From Leeuwenhoekiella nanhaiensis (GTDB lineage Bacteria; Bacteroidota; Bacteroidia; Flavobacteriales; Flavobacteriaceae), in the NCBI RefSeq assembly GCF_002744755.1, contig NZ_KZ319301.1, forward strand, positions 1 through 58,292: a DNA stretch of 58,292 bases. The letters are read 5' to 3'. Position numbers and translations under genes: made by a program. Of the stretch, positions 37,485 to 42,743 are shown in pieces. The notes beneath the pieces were generated by a model. The model was given only the letters and a program-made list of their open reading frames with translations. It made no database searches and had not been told where the DNA came from. Numbering within the stretch: position 1 is the first letter of the stretch; each line of letters opens with the position of its first letter.

Positions 37485-37670
37485 ATGAACCAAACCAAAC
37501 TTAATCTGGAAGATTTCTCTTTTGAGAAATTGGAAGAGCGTAAGGAATTTACGTTCTATTACAGCCACGACTCCGGTTGTGCGAAAACACACAGCTCGTG
37601 TGATCCTTGTGCACCGCCACCGTCTTGTCCACCACCACCTCCACCATCATGTGGCGGTACACCAACCTAA
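37485..37670 (+). CDS. RiPP-like precursor peptide, Cys/Pro-rich core
   Basis: A 61-residue peptide from ATG 37485. The first 30 residues look like a leader (MNQTKLNLEDFSFEKLEE, charged, with an LEDFSFEKL motif suited to an RRE). The last 30 have five Cys (32, 39, 42, 48, 56) and Pro runs (APPPSC, PPPPPPSC) ending GGTPT. An in-frame reading from 37377 is longer but ATG 37485 gives a normal precursor. No function is known for this family. The downstream enzymes make it a strong precursor candidate: Cys could be prenylated, cross-linked or disulfide-bonded. Confidence 0.78.
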   Translation: MNQTKLNLEDFSFEKLEERKEFTFYYSHDSGCAKTHSSCDPCAPPPSCPPPPPPSCGGTPT

Positions 37671-37689
37671 AATAAGTACTAGTTGGGTG

Positions 37690-37747
37690 GCACCTTAAGG
37701 TGCAGTTAAAACTAAAAGTTCAAATTAAATTTTTAATTTGAACTTTT
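37690..37747 (+). terminator. Hairpin attenuator after the precursor gene
   Basis: A perfect 14-bp palindrome GCACCTTAAGGTGC (37690-37703) is followed by a 16-bp perfect stem (37714-37729 with 37732-37747) and a T run. This lies between precursor and enzymes, where RiPP operons often carry a leaky terminator to keep precursor mRNA in excess. Confidence 0.85.
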
Positions 37748-37760
37748 TACATTTTCAGAT

Positions 37761-38573
37761 ATGTCTCAAAACACAGTCTCTACCTATTTTTTTACCCGTT
37801 TACTCGACTTTATCAGTCCATTATGCGTCATAAACAATGACGAAAGATTCAATACGTTTAAAAAGGCTGTAGAGTACTACACGTATTACACCTTTACGAT
37901 TGATGCTCTGGTAGATGGAGAAATCGCATTTGAGATTGGCGTTCCGGCAGCAGAGCACAAGCTTGTTAAAGCAAATCGTTCTAATACCCAATCTTTGCGC
38001 ATATTAGCGCGGTTGTTTGATGAGAACTCCCGTTTTTGGAACATTATGGAAACTTATATGAGTGCCTATTATTGCGGTTTGGTTCTTGAAAAACAACATA
38101 ATACCGCTTCATTTTCGCATAGTCTTGAAAGCTTTAAAGCTTACGCCCTCGCTAAACACGCGCCTGCGTTTGTCCCATCAGGCGGATTGCTGCTGCTTTT
38201 TGAATCGCAAATAGATCAAAAACGGCTGGAGAAGCTCTTAACTCCCTTGTTTTATGGCATGCAAATGCTTGACGATCTGGAAGACTTTGATAAGGATATT
38301 GAATCTGGGCAGTTGACCTATTGCATTAGCCGGGTAAGAAGCTATATCGAAAAAGAAGGGGTAGAAAATCCAAATAATTTGCAACGTTTTGAAGAACGTG
38401 TTTTCTATTTGTCAGGAATTGCCCGTGAATGTAATGATTTTGCGGAAGAGCAATTTCAAAAGGCCAGAGCTGAGGCTTTAAACCTGCAACTTTATGATTT
38501 GGTTTCCTGGATCGAAAGTATGTTTAAGATGCTTGAGCACAACCGGAATATCATCGACGAGGTAAGTAAGTAA
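37761..38573 (+). CDS. Class I isoprenoid-synthase-like enzyme
   Basis: A 270-residue all-helical protein. It carries a first Asp-rich motif in FTIDALVDGE (Asp48, Asp52) and a second in MLDDLEDFDKDIESGQLTY (Asp171, Asp172, Asp175, Asp178). The second is the arrangement of polyprenyl and squalene/phytoene synthase-type enzymes, whose Asp bind Mg-diphosphate. No signal peptide or strong membrane segment is present. Its neighbours are a Cys-rich precursor and a peptide metalloprotease, not terpenoid-pathway genes. It may transfer or process an isoprenyl group on the peptide; this is inference. It ends two bases before the next start. Confidence 0.75.
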   Translation: MSQNTVSTYFFTRLLDFISPLCVINNDERFNTFKKAVEYYTYYTFTIDALVDGEIAFEIGVPAAEHKLVKANRSNTQSLRILARLFDENSRFWNIMETYMSAYYCGLVLEKQHNTASFSHSLESFKAYALAKHAPAFVPSGGLLLLFESQIDQKRLEKLLTPLFYGMQMLDDLEDFDKDIESGQLTYCISRVRSYIEKEGVENPNNLQRFEERVFYLSGIARECNDFAEEQFQKARAEALNLQLYDLVSWIESMFKMLEHNRNIIDEVSK

Positions 38574-38574
38574 A

Positions 38575-39756
38575 ATGGCAATCTTAAAAAAGCATTTCAG
38601 CATTTCAAAATACGAGCAAAACTCCTGGGTTCTGCAGAATGCTAACAGGCATTATATCATTTCTGCCCCGGCAAAAGAACTGGTAGACCTCCTGGAGCGT
38701 GCTGAAAACCTGGAAGATGCCTGTTCCAGATTTAATGAGGATTACGGCTATCAATTTAAACTTGAGGAATTTTGGGCGTTTATTGTAAACCGGTTAGGAT
38801 TTACCGGCTTGCTTTTAGACTACGAACCCGTTGAGGAAAAGGAACATAAATTCATCAACCTTCAGTTTGTAATTCTCAACGCGAAATGGGCCGGTAAAAT
38901 TGCTGCTCCCTTCATTCCCTTATTTAATAAAGTATTTTTTTACATCAGTTTTGGTCTGTTATTTCTGCTTGCGGTTTTTAGTCTGATACGCTTCAGCTTT
39001 CAAAATACGGGTTTTTCGGTGACTGATTTAATGCTTTTGTATCTGGGCACCATAGTACTTCATGAACTTGGTCATATTGCAGCCTGCAAACGGTTCACAG
39101 GGAAAAACGGAGAAATAGGAGGAGGGCTATACCTTATTTTCCCGGTGTTGTTTTCAAACATTACTGCCCTTTGGCAGGCTAAGAAAAGCGAACGCATCAT
39201 TGGCAATCTGGCCGGAGTTTATATGCAATTGTGGTGTCTGGTGTTTTTTTACCTTCTAAATTGGCTTTACCCTGATGTTGTTTTATTCAATCAGATTGTG
39301 TTTATGCTGGCGCTTTACAGCATGATTCAGCTTATTCCCTTTATACGTTCTGACGGGTACTGGCTTTTGTCTGATTGGAGTGGGACACCCAACCTTTTAT
39401 CCAGAGCTAATGCTGCTTTGAGCGACTTTATAAAGTCTCCCAAACGCTTTTATACCACAGATCGAAGACCTAAAGCCTCCTTTCTGTTAGGGTATTCCGT
39501 GTTTAACAATGCGGTAATTCTCTATTTTATAGGTCTTCAACTGGTATGGAACATTCATGCGATACTTGAGTTTCCGCTTTACCTGGTTGATGTTTTTAAG
39601 CACATCTTTCATTTAGAGGCCGTAGCCTTTGATTTTAGCTATTTCCCGGTATTGCTATTCTACGTGGTAAGTTTTCAATTACTGAAACGGGGTTTTGATT
39701 CGGTTTTTAAAGGCAATAAAAACAAAGAGACACTTGCTCAATCTGGAGCAGAATAA
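38575..39756 (+). CDS. PqqD-like/M50-type membrane metalloprotease
   Basis: A 393-residue protein. The N-terminal part (about 1-85) resembles a PqqD/RRE winged-helix (SAPAKELVDLLERAENLEDACSR, LGFTGLLL). The rest has about six membrane helices with the zinc motif HELGH (163-167) inside a helix and a partner Asp-Gly in RSDGYW (260-261), as in site-2-type and YydH/SkfC-like peptide metalloproteases. It is translationally coupled to the upstream gene. A likely role is leader cleavage or membrane maturation of the precursor. It lacks a PDZ domain, so it is not a typical RseP. Confidence 0.8.
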   Translation: MAILKKHFSISKYEQNSWVLQNANRHYIISAPAKELVDLLERAENLEDACSRFNEDYGYQFKLEEFWAFIVNRLGFTGLLLDYEPVEEKEHKFINLQFVILNAKWAGKIAAPFIPLFNKVFFYISFGLLFLLAVFSLIRFSFQNTGFSVTDLMLLYLGTIVLHELGHIAACKRFTGKNGEIGGGLYLIFPVLFSNITALWQAKKSERIIGNLAGVYMQLWCLVFFYLLNWLYPDVVLFNQIVFMLALYSMIQLIPFIRSDGYWLLSDWSGTPNLLSRANAALSDFIKSPKRFYTTDRRPKASFLLGYSVFNNAVILYFIGLQLVWNIHAILEFPLYLVDVFKHIFHLEAVAFDFSYFPVLLFYVVSFQLLKRGFDSVFKGNKNKETLAQSGAE

Positions 39757-39902: not shown

Positions 39903-42743
39903 TTACTCGGTTTCTTCAGGCATTAAAACGCCCATAAAGTAATTGGCATCCAGATATTTGTTGGCCACTTCCTGAAGTTCTTCTGCGGTAAGTGCCTGTA
40001 CGCGTTCTTCAAAGCTCATCATACGCGAGATATCCATATCGTCTTCATCACTTTCCTGCAATACCGAAAGCCAAAAGCCATTCTGTTGCATTTTGTCTTT
40101 ACGTTCCTGTAAATAGGTTTCTTTGACTTTAGCCAAATCTTCAGCAGTAGGACCATTTTCCTTAAGTTTTTCTGTTTCGGCCAGAGCAGCTTCCGTTAGT
40201 TTCTCCACATTATCAGGCCCGCAAGGGAAGCTGATGCTGAAAGTTGCATTTCCATAAGGATATTTACGTAAGTTTCCGTTAGCGCCTACACCATAAACAC
40301 CACCTATTTCTTCACGCAATTGCTCAATAAGTTTGATGGTAAGTACTTCGCCAAGAGCGTCTAATTCAAGAGCTTCATCAGCATCATAATCGGTTTCTTC
40401 AACCCATACAATTTGAACACTACTTTTAGGATCTGTACCTTTATTTACAACAACTTTTTGATACTCATCTTTCACGCGGAACTCTGGCACTTCAAAAGTC
40501 TCGTTACTGTCTTTTCCGGGTAGACTGCCAATATAAGTTTTAGCAAATTCTTTCAGCTTTGCTTCATCAATATTCCCAACGAAGTAGAAGTTGAAATCCC
40601 CGGCATCTGCAAAACGCTCCTGATATTTGGCATACGCCAAATCGTAATCAGCCTCATCCAGTTTTTCAGGTGTAGGGAAACCACTAAATCTTGGGTTACC
40701 CTCGTTACGTACTTTGCCTATTTCATTCTGATAATAGTAATTGGGGTTAGCCATCAGGTTGCCCAAAAAGCTCTTTTGCTTGCTTATAAATGAATTGTAG
40801 GCTTCTTCATCTTTATTTAGACCTGTAAAATACAAATAGACCTGTTGAAAAAGCGTCTCAAGATCCTTTGGCGCTGCCTGACCTCTAAAGCCTTCAGTAC
40901 TGCTGGAAATATAGGGTGAAACACCAACTATTTTTCCGCTCATCATTTTATTCATATCGTTAAGGGAAAGACCGCCAATACCTGCCTGTGATAAACCACC
41001 ATTGGCGTAAACGGTATTTAGGTAGTCTTCGTCAGAATATAAGCTTGTACCCCCATAACTGAAAGCGCTAAACAGCACCTCGTCATTCTTAAAATCGGTG
41101 ATTTTGTAGGTAACTTTTGCTCCGTTACTCAGGGTAAACGATTTGTAGTCTAAGTCGGCATTGGTTTCTTCAGAAACAATTGTGCCCGCCTGAGGTTTGG
41201 TTTCAAGCAGTTCACTGCGTACAGCCTCGTCCTCGTAGGCAGTTAGTTCAGCATTCTCTACTTCTTCAAGCAAAGCCAAAACTTCGTCTTCTTTGACCAA
41301 CTCCAGTCCCTCTTTTTCGGGGCCGGTAAGAATGATTACCCGGTTGTCTGGATGTATAAAGTTTTTAATAAGACCGTTTACGTCTTTAAGTTCTATTGAA
41401 GGAAGCACTTTTTGATAGAAGTCATATTCCCACTCAATCCCGGGAATAGGCTCTTCTTCCAGATAATTATTGATGTACTCACCTACAATACGACCACTTT
41501 CTATCTTATCACGATCTTTATAAGCCTTTTCCATACGGGCAATCAGCTCTTTTTTGGCGCGCTCCAGTTCACCTTCCTGAAAACCAAAACGCTTTACGCG
41601 CTCGTTCTCTTCCAGCAAGGCCTGTAATGCAGTCAGTTGTCCGGTTTCGCTCGTTTGAGCTACAGACTGATAGGCTTTTTTATCACGGGCATAGGTGCCA
41701 CCATAATAGCTGTATCCAAAAATAAAGGGAGGATTTGCCGCATTACGCAATTCATTCAGCCTGTTGTTTAACATCGTTGAAAACAAACTGCGCACAACCA
41801 GATCTTTATAATCCTGAGTGGTCTTAGCAGCCGGACTCTTAAACGTGTCTTTGTACATTACCTGAACGCGGCTAAAAGGCGCTTCAGGATCGCTGGCTAC
41901 AGTTATGAAGGTTTCCTCGTGGTTAGGCAGATCAAATTCTTCACGTTTCGGAGCATTTTTTGCAGGCTCAATTCTTCCGAAGTGATCTTTTATTTTTTGC
42001 TCCAGGGTGGCTACATCGAGATCACCCACAGCGACTACCGCCATCAAATCAGGACGGTACCAGTCGTTGTAAAAATTACGCAGAGTCTCGTAGTCGAAGT
42101 TCTCCAGAACGTCTTTTTTACCAATGGGTAAGCGCTCTGCATATTTTGAACCGTAAAGCATTTTAGGTAAATACTCCTGTAGCATACGCTTATCAGGACC
42201 TAAGCCCAGACGGTATTCTTCAAGCACGACGCCACGTTCCCCATCAATGGCTTCTTCAGTAAGCGTAGTATTGTGCGCCCAGTCTTCCAGAATCTGAAAT
42301 CCTTTTTCCAACTTTTCAGGATCATCACTGGGGATGGGTAAGATGTATACCGTCTCGTCAAAACTGGTGTAAGCGTTAAGGTCAGCACCAAATTTCACAC
42401 CGATGCTTTGCAGGTAATCTACCAGTTCGTTTTTTTGAAAATTGGTAGTTCCGTTAAAGTTCATGTGCTCCATAAAATGCGCCAGACCCTGCTGATCATC
42501 ATTTTCAAGGATCGAACCGGCATTAACAACCAGACGTAATTCTACCTTGTCTTCGGGCTTGCCATTGTTGCGAATGTAATAGGTGAGACCGTTCTCAAGC
42601 TTTCCTATTTTGACGTTAGGATCTGTTGGGATTTGACCTTGCGGAATGTTTGCCGAATTGGCCTTGTTCTCTACATTTTGAGCTTGTACCGTTCCCAGGA
42701 GGAACAGACAGAGACCAAAAATCCAAAAATTGTGCTTTTTCAT
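39903..42743 (-). CDS. M16-family (insulinase/pitrilysin) zinc protease
   Basis: A 946-residue secreted protease with a signal peptide (ending VQAQ). The inverted zinc motif HFMEH lies in GLAHFMEHMNFNGT (about residues 85-98), with the downstream Glu region in GVVLEEYR. Two tandem M16 modules plus inactive C-domains give the usual clamshell of about 930 residues. The C-terminal module keeps FSISFPCGPDN. Likely located in the periplasm, degrading peptides. Confidence 0.92.
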   Translation of the reverse strand: MKKHNFWIFGLCLFLLGTVQAQNVENKANSANIPQGQIPTDPNVKIGKLENGLTYYIRNNGKPEDKVELRLVVNAGSILENDDQQGLAHFMEHMNFNGTTNFQKNELVDYLQSIGVKFGADLNAYTSFDETVYILPIPSDDPEKLEKGFQILEDWAHNTTLTEEAIDGERGVVLEEYRLGLGPDKRMLQEYLPKMLYGSKYAERLPIGKKDVLENFDYETLRNFYNDWYRPDLMAVVAVGDLDVATLEQKIKDHFGRIEPAKNAPKREEFDLPNHEETFITVASDPEAPFSRVQVMYKDTFKSPAAKTTQDYKDLVVRSLFSTMLNNRLNELRNAANPPFIFGYSYYGGTYARDKKAYQSVAQTSETGQLTALQALLEENERVKRFGFQEGELERAKKELIARMEKAYKDRDKIESGRIVGEYINNYLEEEPIPGIEWEYDFYQKVLPSIELKDVNGLIKNFIHPDNRVIILTGPEKEGLELVKEDEVLALLEEVENAELTAYEDEAVRSELLETKPQAGTIVSEETNADLDYKSFTLSNGAKVTYKITDFKNDEVLFSAFSYGGTSLYSDEDYLNTVYANGGLSQAGIGGLSLNDMNKMMSGKIVGVSPYISSSTEGFRGQAAPKDLETLFQQVYLYFTGLNKDEEAYNSFISKQKSFLGNLMANPNYYYQNEIGKVRNEGNPRFSGFPTPEKLDEADYDLAYAKYQERFADAGDFNFYFVGNIDEAKLKEFAKTYIGSLPGKDSNETFEVPEFRVKDEYQKVVVNKGTDPKSSVQIVWVEETDYDADEALELDALGEVLTIKLIEQLREEIGGVYGVGANGNLRKYPYGNATFSISFPCGPDNVEKLTEAALAETEKLKENGPTAEDLAKVKETYLQERKDKMQQNGFWLSVLQESDEDDMDISRMMSFEERVQALTAEELQEVANKYLDANYFMGVLMPEETE

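What the first reader, a model, noticed from the sequence alone, without database searches (positions are those of the whole stretch)
37485..39756. A compact RiPP-like locus joining a Cys/Pro-rich precursor, an isoprenoid-synthase-fold enzyme and an M50-type peptide protease
Seen in sequence: a 61-residue leader-core peptide, a terminator-like hairpin, an enzyme with both class I Asp-rich motifs, and a PqqD-like plus HELGH membrane protein, all on one strand with two of the genes translationally coupled. Known: PqqD/RRE domains bind leader peptides and YydH/SkfC-type M50 proteins mature RiPPs. Inference: the isoprenoid-type enzyme modifies the peptide, perhaps on Cys, giving a lipidated or cyclised product. 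I do not know a described RiPP class with this set of parts.
Basis: partly seen in the sequence, partly recalled or inferred. Interest (0 to 1): 0.92.

Follow-up and report, generated by a model that had tools for sequence, protein, structure and literature searches.

The report
Minimal cassette for prenylated peptides
Three neighbouring genes in a marine bacterium appear to make a small peptide, attach an oily isoprenoid chain to it and trim it; it looks like a stripped-down relative of a recently described tryptophan-modifying system, but its peptide contains no tryptophan, so the chain would have to go onto a different amino acid.

Summary
A 61-aa precursor, a hairpin, a 270-aa isoprenoid-synthase-fold enzyme and a 393-aa HELGH membrane protease with a probable leader-binding domain form a three-gene cassette. 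In 13 genus genomes, 6 hold enzyme and protease and 7 hold neither. The leader is under purifying selection.

The parts are not unprecedented. In 15 of 30 loci examined, the same enzyme domain comes with a squalene-cyclase-like domain (14 fused, 1 split). There, 20 of 21 precursors carry Trp just after the leader. This fits the published ChrPC maturase, which prenylates Trp and cyclises the prenyl group; ChrPC itself could not be aligned.

The window belongs to a well-supported ten-locus clade with no cyclase and no Trp at that site (0 of 13 precursors). Tyr at or next to the Trp position is kept in 13 of 13, and all 13 carry Cys. I read it as a stand-alone peptide prenyltransferase acting on Tyr or Cys, followed by leader removal by the protease. 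A 2026 review states that all characterised peptide prenyltransferases of this type target Trp. New variant of a known kind; reaction, acceptor and product are untested.

The parts
37485..37670 (+). Precursor peptide gene, 61 aa
   Evidence: homologues in the same order in 5 relatives counted as same genus; 0 non-synonymous leader changes in 14 codons
37515..37559 (+). Conserved leader block FSFEKLEERKEFTFY (residues 11-25), ending in Tyr25
   Evidence: Alignments; tally
37560..37667 (+). Variable Cys/Pro-rich presumed core, no Trp, 5 Cys (residues 26-61; the cleavage site is not known)
37714..37747 (+). AT-rich hairpin plus T run between precursor and enzyme, read as an attenuating terminator (inference)
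37761..38573 (+). Stand-alone isoprenoid-synthase-fold enzyme (P domain), 270 aa
   Evidence: AlphaFold2 pLDDT 86.3; 15 of 15 PDB fold matches with E <= 0.001 are prenyl diphosphate synthases or terpene synthases of that fold
37902..37916 (+). First Asp motif D48xxxD52
   Evidence: Invariant in 21 of 21 rows
38271..38297 (+). Second Asp motif D171 D172 xx D175 xxx D179, preceded by Gln168
   Evidence: Asp invariant, Gln nearly invariant in 21 rows
38575..39756 (+). M50-type intramembrane metalloprotease with probable RRE, 393 aa
   Evidence: NCBIfam NF041824 daptide_HExxH E 1.3e-25, NF058609 LiaK/YydH E 1.2e-14, both below cut-off; no Pfam match
38599..38805 (+). PqqD/RRE-like N-terminal domain (three strands, three helices)
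   Evidence: Model; the nine best of 74 fold matches are RiPP enzymes or stand-alone RREs, but E 0.095-1.2
39061..39075 (+). HELGH zinc site; presumed third ligand Asp260 in RSDGYW (39352-39354)
   Evidence: ligand role recalled from M50 proteases

Best explanation
A minimal lipopeptide RiPP cassette. The precursor is made in excess because a hairpin attenuates read-through. Its leader (FSFEKLEERKEFTFY) binds the RRE of the membrane protease and probably also the enzyme. The enzyme, a stand-alone prenyltransferase domain related to the P domain of cyclase-bearing maturases, uses its two Asp motifs and Mg to ionise a prenyl diphosphate (probably C15 or C20) and transfers it to the peptide. Because the window's peptide has no Trp and its clade has none at the usual Trp site, the acceptor is a different residue: Tyr25, which lies at or next to the usual Trp position, or a core Cys. 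With no cyclase the chain stays linear. The prenyl anchor then presents the peptide to the intramembrane protease, which removes the leader: a bacterial parallel in logic, not in ancestry, to eukaryotic CaaX prenylation followed by membrane proteolysis. Shown: gene set, selection on the leader, predicted fold, motifs, co-inheritance, absence of cyclase and of Trp. Inferred: attenuation, leader binding, prenyl transfer, acceptor, order of steps, cleavage, biological role.
For: Enzyme in 6 of 13 genomes of the genus, protease in the same 6; in 7 of 7 without it ParA lies next to the SDR gene. Cassette with protease and precursor in 12 of the 15 loci whose enzyme has no cyclase domain and on a Hymenobacter plasmid. 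Cyclase-bearing relatives: SQHop_cyclase_C in 4 of 4 tested (best 8.2e-20) and Trp at the third to seventh residue after LExRxE in 20 of 21 precursors, fitting ChrPC as described in PMC13290415 section 2.4 (section read). Clade support: enzyme 99/99 and 100/100, protease 100/100. Fold. Probable RRE. Protease nearest to the daptide HExxH model; PMC11002830 says MpaP removes the daptide leader (passage). Clade-specific residues: H133 beside K132, F164 and M169 before the second motif. Two ordinary polyprenyl synthases and no SQHop_cyclase_C match in the genome.
Against: No chemistry is shown. The Gln before the second motif, which the review ties to Trp recognition, is kept here. Trp occurs elsewhere in three loci of the clade: further on in L071 (index 10, 2 of 2 precursors), at the end of L072, and in the leader of L051. 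The Hymenobacter cassette has a stand-alone enzyme and Trp but no Tyr at that place, and L052 has a stand-alone enzyme with Trp and Tyr, so 'no cyclase' does not by itself predict 'no Trp'. Tyr25 may be kept as part of the leader rather than as an acceptor. The protease model is weak (pLDDT 70.2), its RRE fold matches have E above 0.05, and Pfam finds neither PqqD nor M50 in it. Pfam PF13243 scored a divergent cyclase domain only just above cut-off (L038, 27.6 of 26.1 bits), so a divergent one elsewhere in the genome could have been missed.
Confidence: 0.72

Rival explanations
1. Cys S-prenylation: the enzyme prenylates one or more core Cys.
For: 13 of 13 precursors of the ten-locus clade, and those of L041 and L052, have at least one Cys after the leader, against 12 of 21 in cyclase-bearing loci. 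In two of three L070 copies and one L041 copy a Cys stands at index 2, a usual Trp place. Cys32 is invariant in the eight-row alignment.
Against: Number and spacing of Cys vary (1 to 5 in the clade). A zinc site of the eukaryotic type was not looked for. Cys may instead form disulfides or bind metal. Both L071 precursors have only one Cys.
Confidence: 0.38
2. Tyr prenylation at Tyr25: the acceptor is the Tyr that lies at or one residue beyond the Trp site of the cyclase-bearing relatives.
Against: The Hymenobacter stand-alone cassette lacks it. Rows are not independent: 13 of the 15 are one clade. Tyr25 lies at the leader end and may serve leader binding.
Confidence: 0.4
3. Not a peptide-modifying enzyme: it makes a special isoprenoid donor or a free terpene, and another enzyme or none modifies the peptide.
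For: Fold and Asp motifs resemble those of chain-length synthases.
Against: No other candidate modifying enzyme in the cassette; two ordinary polyprenyl synthases already exist; co-occurrence with a precursor and the protease in loci across the phylum; homologous domains joined to cyclases beside Trp precursors.
Confidence: 0.12
4. The locus is a decaying ChrPC-type cassette without cyclase and acceptor and is non-functional.
For: No cyclase in locus or genome; no Trp.
Against: All catalytic Asp kept, leader with 7 synonymous and 0 non-synonymous changes in 14 codons, clade found in two families with both enzymes kept, hairpin covaries.
Confidence: 0.04

Closest known systems
ChrPC-type prenyltransferase-terpene cyclase maturases (Hubrich et al. 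2024, not held; described in PMC13290415)
   Same: Isoprenoid-synthase-superfamily P domain acting on a ribosomal peptide; relatives of the window enzyme found here have such a domain plus a cyclase domain beside Trp precursors
   Different: Window has no cyclase domain and no Trp in the precursor; it sits in a stand-alone clade. Homology to ChrPC itself not tested
ComQ/ComX and PalQ/PalX
   Same: Stand-alone trans-IDS-like peptide prenyltransferases with a small precursor
   Different: Both use Trp; ComQ lacks the second Asp motif (PMC10853753, passages), which is intact here; ComX is cleaved by unknown proteases (same passages), whereas here a protease gene is part of the cassette
Daptide MpaP and LiaK/YydH-type HExxH proteases
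   Same: RiPP-linked HExxH membrane protease; the only NCBIfam hits of the window protease
   Different: Scores far below the equivalog cut-offs (90.3 of 300; 54.6 of 225); the cassette has none of the other daptide genes
Eukaryotic CaaX processing
   Same: Prenylation followed by membrane proteolysis, in logic only
   Different: Comparison recalled from general knowledge; no homology claimed or tested

Membership tests
RiPP cassette (general) | Short gene-encoded precursor with conserved leader and variable core beside a modifying enzyme | tested here: met
RiPP cassette (general) | Leader-binding RRE in a partner protein | tested here: inconclusive
   Nine best fold matches are RiPP/RRE proteins but E 0.095-1.2; no Pfam hit
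RiPP cassette (general) | Modified peptide product | not testable with these tools
   Needs mass spectrometry
Trans-IDS-like peptide prenyltransferase | Isoprenoid synthase fold | tested here: met
   Predicted model
Trans-IDS-like peptide prenyltransferase | Asp motifs for prenyl diphosphate | tested here: met
   Six Asp invariant in 21 of 21 rows; the first motif is DxxxD
Trans-IDS-like peptide prenyltransferase | Trp acceptor in the precursor (true of all characterised members per PMC13290415) | tested here: not met
   No Trp in any of the six precursors counted as same genus
Trans-IDS-like peptide prenyltransferase | Gln just before the second Asp motif | tested here: met
   Gln168 in 10 of 10 of the clade and 14 of 15 cyclase-bearing rows
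ChrPC-type maturase | Cyclase (C) domain, fused or adjacent | tested here: not met
   No C-domain hit in the locus, no PF13243 match in the genome
ChrPC-type maturase | Sequence homology to ChrPC itself | not tested
   Sequence not available; only architecture-matched relatives compared
ComQ family (IPR033965) | Match to the family model | not tested
   That model was not searched; Pfam and NCBIfam gave no relevant match
Daptide HExxH protease (NF041824) | Score above the equivalog cut-off | tested here: not met
   90.3 bits of 300
YydH/LiaK protease (NF058609) | Score above the equivalog cut-off | tested here: not met
   54.6 bits of 225

The most novel reading that the evidence does not exclude
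A clade of stand-alone isoprenoid-synthase-fold enzymes that uses Tyr or Cys instead of Trp as acceptor and works with an RRE-bearing intramembrane protease: a two-enzyme bacterial route to linear prenylated peptides, analogous in logic to CaaX processing and, if the acceptor is Cys, an S-prenylating peptide enzyme of a type so far known (per PMC13290415) only for Trp.
Probability: 0.58. Interest if true: 0.82.

Novelty: new variant of a known kind. Interest (0 to 1): 0.68.

Why it matters
The review read here in part (PMC13290415, 2026) says every characterised peptide prenyltransferase of this type targets Trp. A clade whose precursors lack Trp at the site offers a natural test of how acceptor choice evolves, with a possible intermediate (Hymenobacter: no cyclase, Trp kept). 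It may give a leader-guided enzyme that puts prenyl chains on Tyr or Cys. A published antiSMASH and BAGEL4 survey of a strain that carries the cassette, L. parthenopeia Mr9, lists no cluster type that fits it (PMC9859067, passages), so such loci can be missed by routine mining.

Tried and rejected
Rejected: an ordinary carotenoid, hopanoid or chain-length synthase (the genome search with PF00348 finds two other genes and not this one; Pfam gives it no such match at E up to 10; it sits in a RiPP-like cassette). Not supported: a cyclase acting from elsewhere in the genome. Rejected as family members: L074 and L075, no protease and no precursor, kept only as outgroup. L062-L064 (E about 5e-8 to 1.2e-7, open frames 340-345 aa) and L019, L020 (E 0.002 and 0.009; only the L019 ORFs looked at) were not followed. 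L046, a weak relative with NHLP-type precursors, was only scanned. No formal statistics on Trp or Tyr against architecture were made because the rows are related. One motif hit on the minus strand of L070 (tail WMFM) was dropped before counting; it lies in another frame of a 535-aa ORF. The Hymenobacter precursor fits the leader by eye only: the motif pattern does not fit it and the A6 profile does not find it. Literature: ten searches; in the listings and passages seen there was no report of Trp-free precursors for this enzyme type. The key primary paper (PMC11484575) is not held, so novelty is judged through a review.

Full report
WHAT IS THERE. On the + strand lie a 61-aa precursor (37485-37670), a 270-aa enzyme (37761-38573) and a 393-aa protein (38575-39756). 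Enzyme and protease genes are separated by one nucleotide. A hairpin lies between precursor and enzyme: 37680-37750 folds at z -5.64. Six sequences counted as the genus all have a hairpin there; the stem shows 4 of 13 pairs with changes on both sides and all 64 cells paired in 5 distinct rows. Single-sequence folds also show hairpins of other sequence before the enzyme in L051, L070, L071, L072 and L052 (no shuffle control). I read it as an attenuator giving more precursor than enzyme. The simple terminator scan did not list it.

IT IS REAL AND PATCHY WITHIN THE GENUS. Titles of matching contigs name Leeuwenhoekiella for three relatives. Of 13 genomes counted as the genus, 6 (own included) have the enzyme, the same 6 have the protease, and all 6 have the precursor in the same order. 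The other 7 lack both enzymes; in 7 of 7 ParA lies next to the SDR gene with no ORF of 60 aa or more listed between. In 5 of the 6 carriers the cassette lies between these two genes, in three of them with an M16 peptidase as well. The sixth, G006, has it elsewhere; it is a MAG with 9% contamination whose contig is titled Cytophagaceae, so its genus label is unsure. Over 14 leader codons the precursor shows 7 synonymous and 0 non-synonymous changes against L007 and against L008, whose enzymes are 46 and 39% identical to the window's. The leader evolves more slowly than the enzymes; the core varies.

THE ENZYME. Pfam, NCBIfam and PHROGs give no meaningful match. AlphaFold2 on five sequences gives an almost all-helical model (pLDDT 86.3, pTM 0.85). 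Its 15 PDB matches with E up to 0.001 are prenyl diphosphate synthases or terpene synthases of that fold (best E 1.4e-4, TM by query up to 0.74). In 21 aligned domains D48, D52, W93, D171, D172, D175 and D179 are invariant, and K132 and Q168 nearly so.

THE PROTEASE. Its two NCBIfam matches are the daptide HExxH protease (E 1.3e-25, 90.3 bits against a cut-off of 300) and the LiaK/YydH protease (E 1.2e-14, 54.6 of 225); the proteases of L041, L037 and Hymenobacter give the same two, also below cut-off. Pfam gives no match, though M50 is found weakly in the relatives from L048 and L041. HExGH and RSDGYW are invariant in eight rows; Hymenobacter has HEAGH and RRDGYW. The model is weaker (pLDDT 70.2, pTM 0.52). 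Its N-terminal strands and helices match RiPP leader-binding domains: the nine best are ThcOx, TbiB1 with leader, heterocyclases and McbBCD, with PqqD, TruD and SkfB lower among unrelated hits. No match has E below 0.09.

THE WIDER FAMILY. Profile searches covered 397 genomes of the family (10 with a match at E 0.01 or better), 395 of the phylum (11 at 1e-4), 395 of the order (12 at 1e-6) and 395 of the class (6 at 1e-6); the window's own genome is in each, and the sets overlap. So the family is sparse. Of the 30, 12 have an enzyme without cyclase domain plus protease and precursor; three more without cyclase (L046, L074, L075) have neither protease nor an LExRxE precursor. Fifteen have the enzyme domain with a cyclase domain, 14 fused and one (L069) as two adjacent genes. 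The cyclase profile was built from 11 of these 15, so only L038, L044, L069 and L073 are independent hits of it; Pfam SQHop_cyclase_C was tested on four (L048, L037, L047, L038) and hit all four, best 8.2e-20, with squalene-hopene cyclase structures as relatives of L048. Among the 15, the protease was found in 14 and precursors in 14; the misses, L038 and L073, lie on contigs of 12.3 and 4.4 kb.

WHAT THE PRECURSORS SHOW. Counting residues after LExRxE from 0, in cyclase-bearing loci 20 of 21 precursors carry Trp at index 2 to 6 (index 2 in 10, index 3 in 9, index 6 in one); the exception is L044 (index 19). In the ten-locus clade of the window 0 of 13 have Trp there; Trp occurs further on in L071 (both copies), at the end of L072, and in the leader of L051. 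Tyr at index 3 is present in 13 of 13 of the clade, and in L041 and L052, against 2 of 21 in cyclase-bearing loci. So Tyr25 lies at the Trp place or one residue beyond. All 15 of these cyclase-free precursors have Cys, against 12 of 21. A second L041 precursor copy, open at the locus start and so not scanned, also has Tyr there. L052, nested among cyclase-bearing loci, keeps Trp. A Hymenobacter plasmid carries a stand-alone enzyme, the protease and, by eye, a precursor with Trp and without that Tyr, all three annotated hypothetical; no cyclase is found in its 10.8 kb. It groups with the window's clade (93/85, not starred, midpoint root). Absence of the cyclase may therefore be older than absence of Trp; this is inference, and the trees cannot tell gain from loss.

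TREES. The ten loci form one clade in the enzyme tree (99/99; 100/100) and in the protease tree (100/100), each on a long stem. Cyclase-free enzymes need at least three changes on each tree. Clade-specific residues include His133 next to Lys132, and Phe164 and Met169 just before the second Asp motif (L052 also has Met169). This fits a changed acceptor pocket, though no pocket was modelled.

KNOWN SYSTEMS. Section 2.4 of PMC13290415 (section read; other passages; part of the reference list) describes the P domain of ChrPC as prenylating an internal Trp and its C domain as cyclising the prenyl group, and states that all characterised trans-IDS-like peptide prenyltransferases target Trp. It links a Gln before the second Asp motif to Trp recognition; that Gln is kept here, which tells against a simple switch. 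The primary ChrPC paper is not held, so I could not align the sequence. PMC10853753 (passages) says that ComQ lacks the second Asp motif. PMC11002830 (passages) says that MpaP removes the daptide leader. PMC9859067 (passages) lists, for L. parthenopeia Mr9, five antiSMASH clusters and two BAGEL4 areas, none of a type that fits this cassette; the strain carries it (L010). PMC12715784 (passages) shows that another kind of peptide prenyltransferase needs the leader, a precedent for leader-guided transfer.

MECHANISM. Most likely: leader-guided prenyl transfer to Tyr25 or a Cys without cyclisation, then leader removal at the membrane by the protease. The genome has two ordinary polyprenyl synthases that could supply the donor and no SQHop_cyclase_C match. 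No exporter is part of the cassette: between ParA and SDR in L011 and L007 only the three genes were listed. The role (antibacterial, signal or surface peptide) is unknown.

Noticed in passing
L040:9361-10752 and L042:9794-11419 (look-alikes by eye in L039 and L045): Cyclase-bearing cassettes that also hold a radical SAM/SPASM peptide maturase (for L040 and L042), suggesting prenyl plus radical-SAM hybrid peptides.
   Followed up: partly
L046:5211-6821: A distant stand-alone relative of the enzyme beside two short ORFs with weak NHLP-clan matches (below cut-off) whose tails carry Trp.
   Followed up: partly
L095:4929-7256 (Hymenobacter sp. DG01 plasmid NZ_CP040937.1): Stand-alone enzyme, protease and a likely Trp precursor on a plasmid, all annotated hypothetical.
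   Followed up: partly
window 39903-42743: M16 peptidase beside the cassette, with relatives of 91-93% identity at the same place in two of the four other genomes with the cassette at this site.
   Followed up: yes
L037:5364-6364: Six short precursors with the same leader and different tails in one locus.
   Followed up: no
L070:5919-6507: Three tandem precursors; the residue at index 2 after the leader motif is Phe in one and Cys in two.
   Followed up: no
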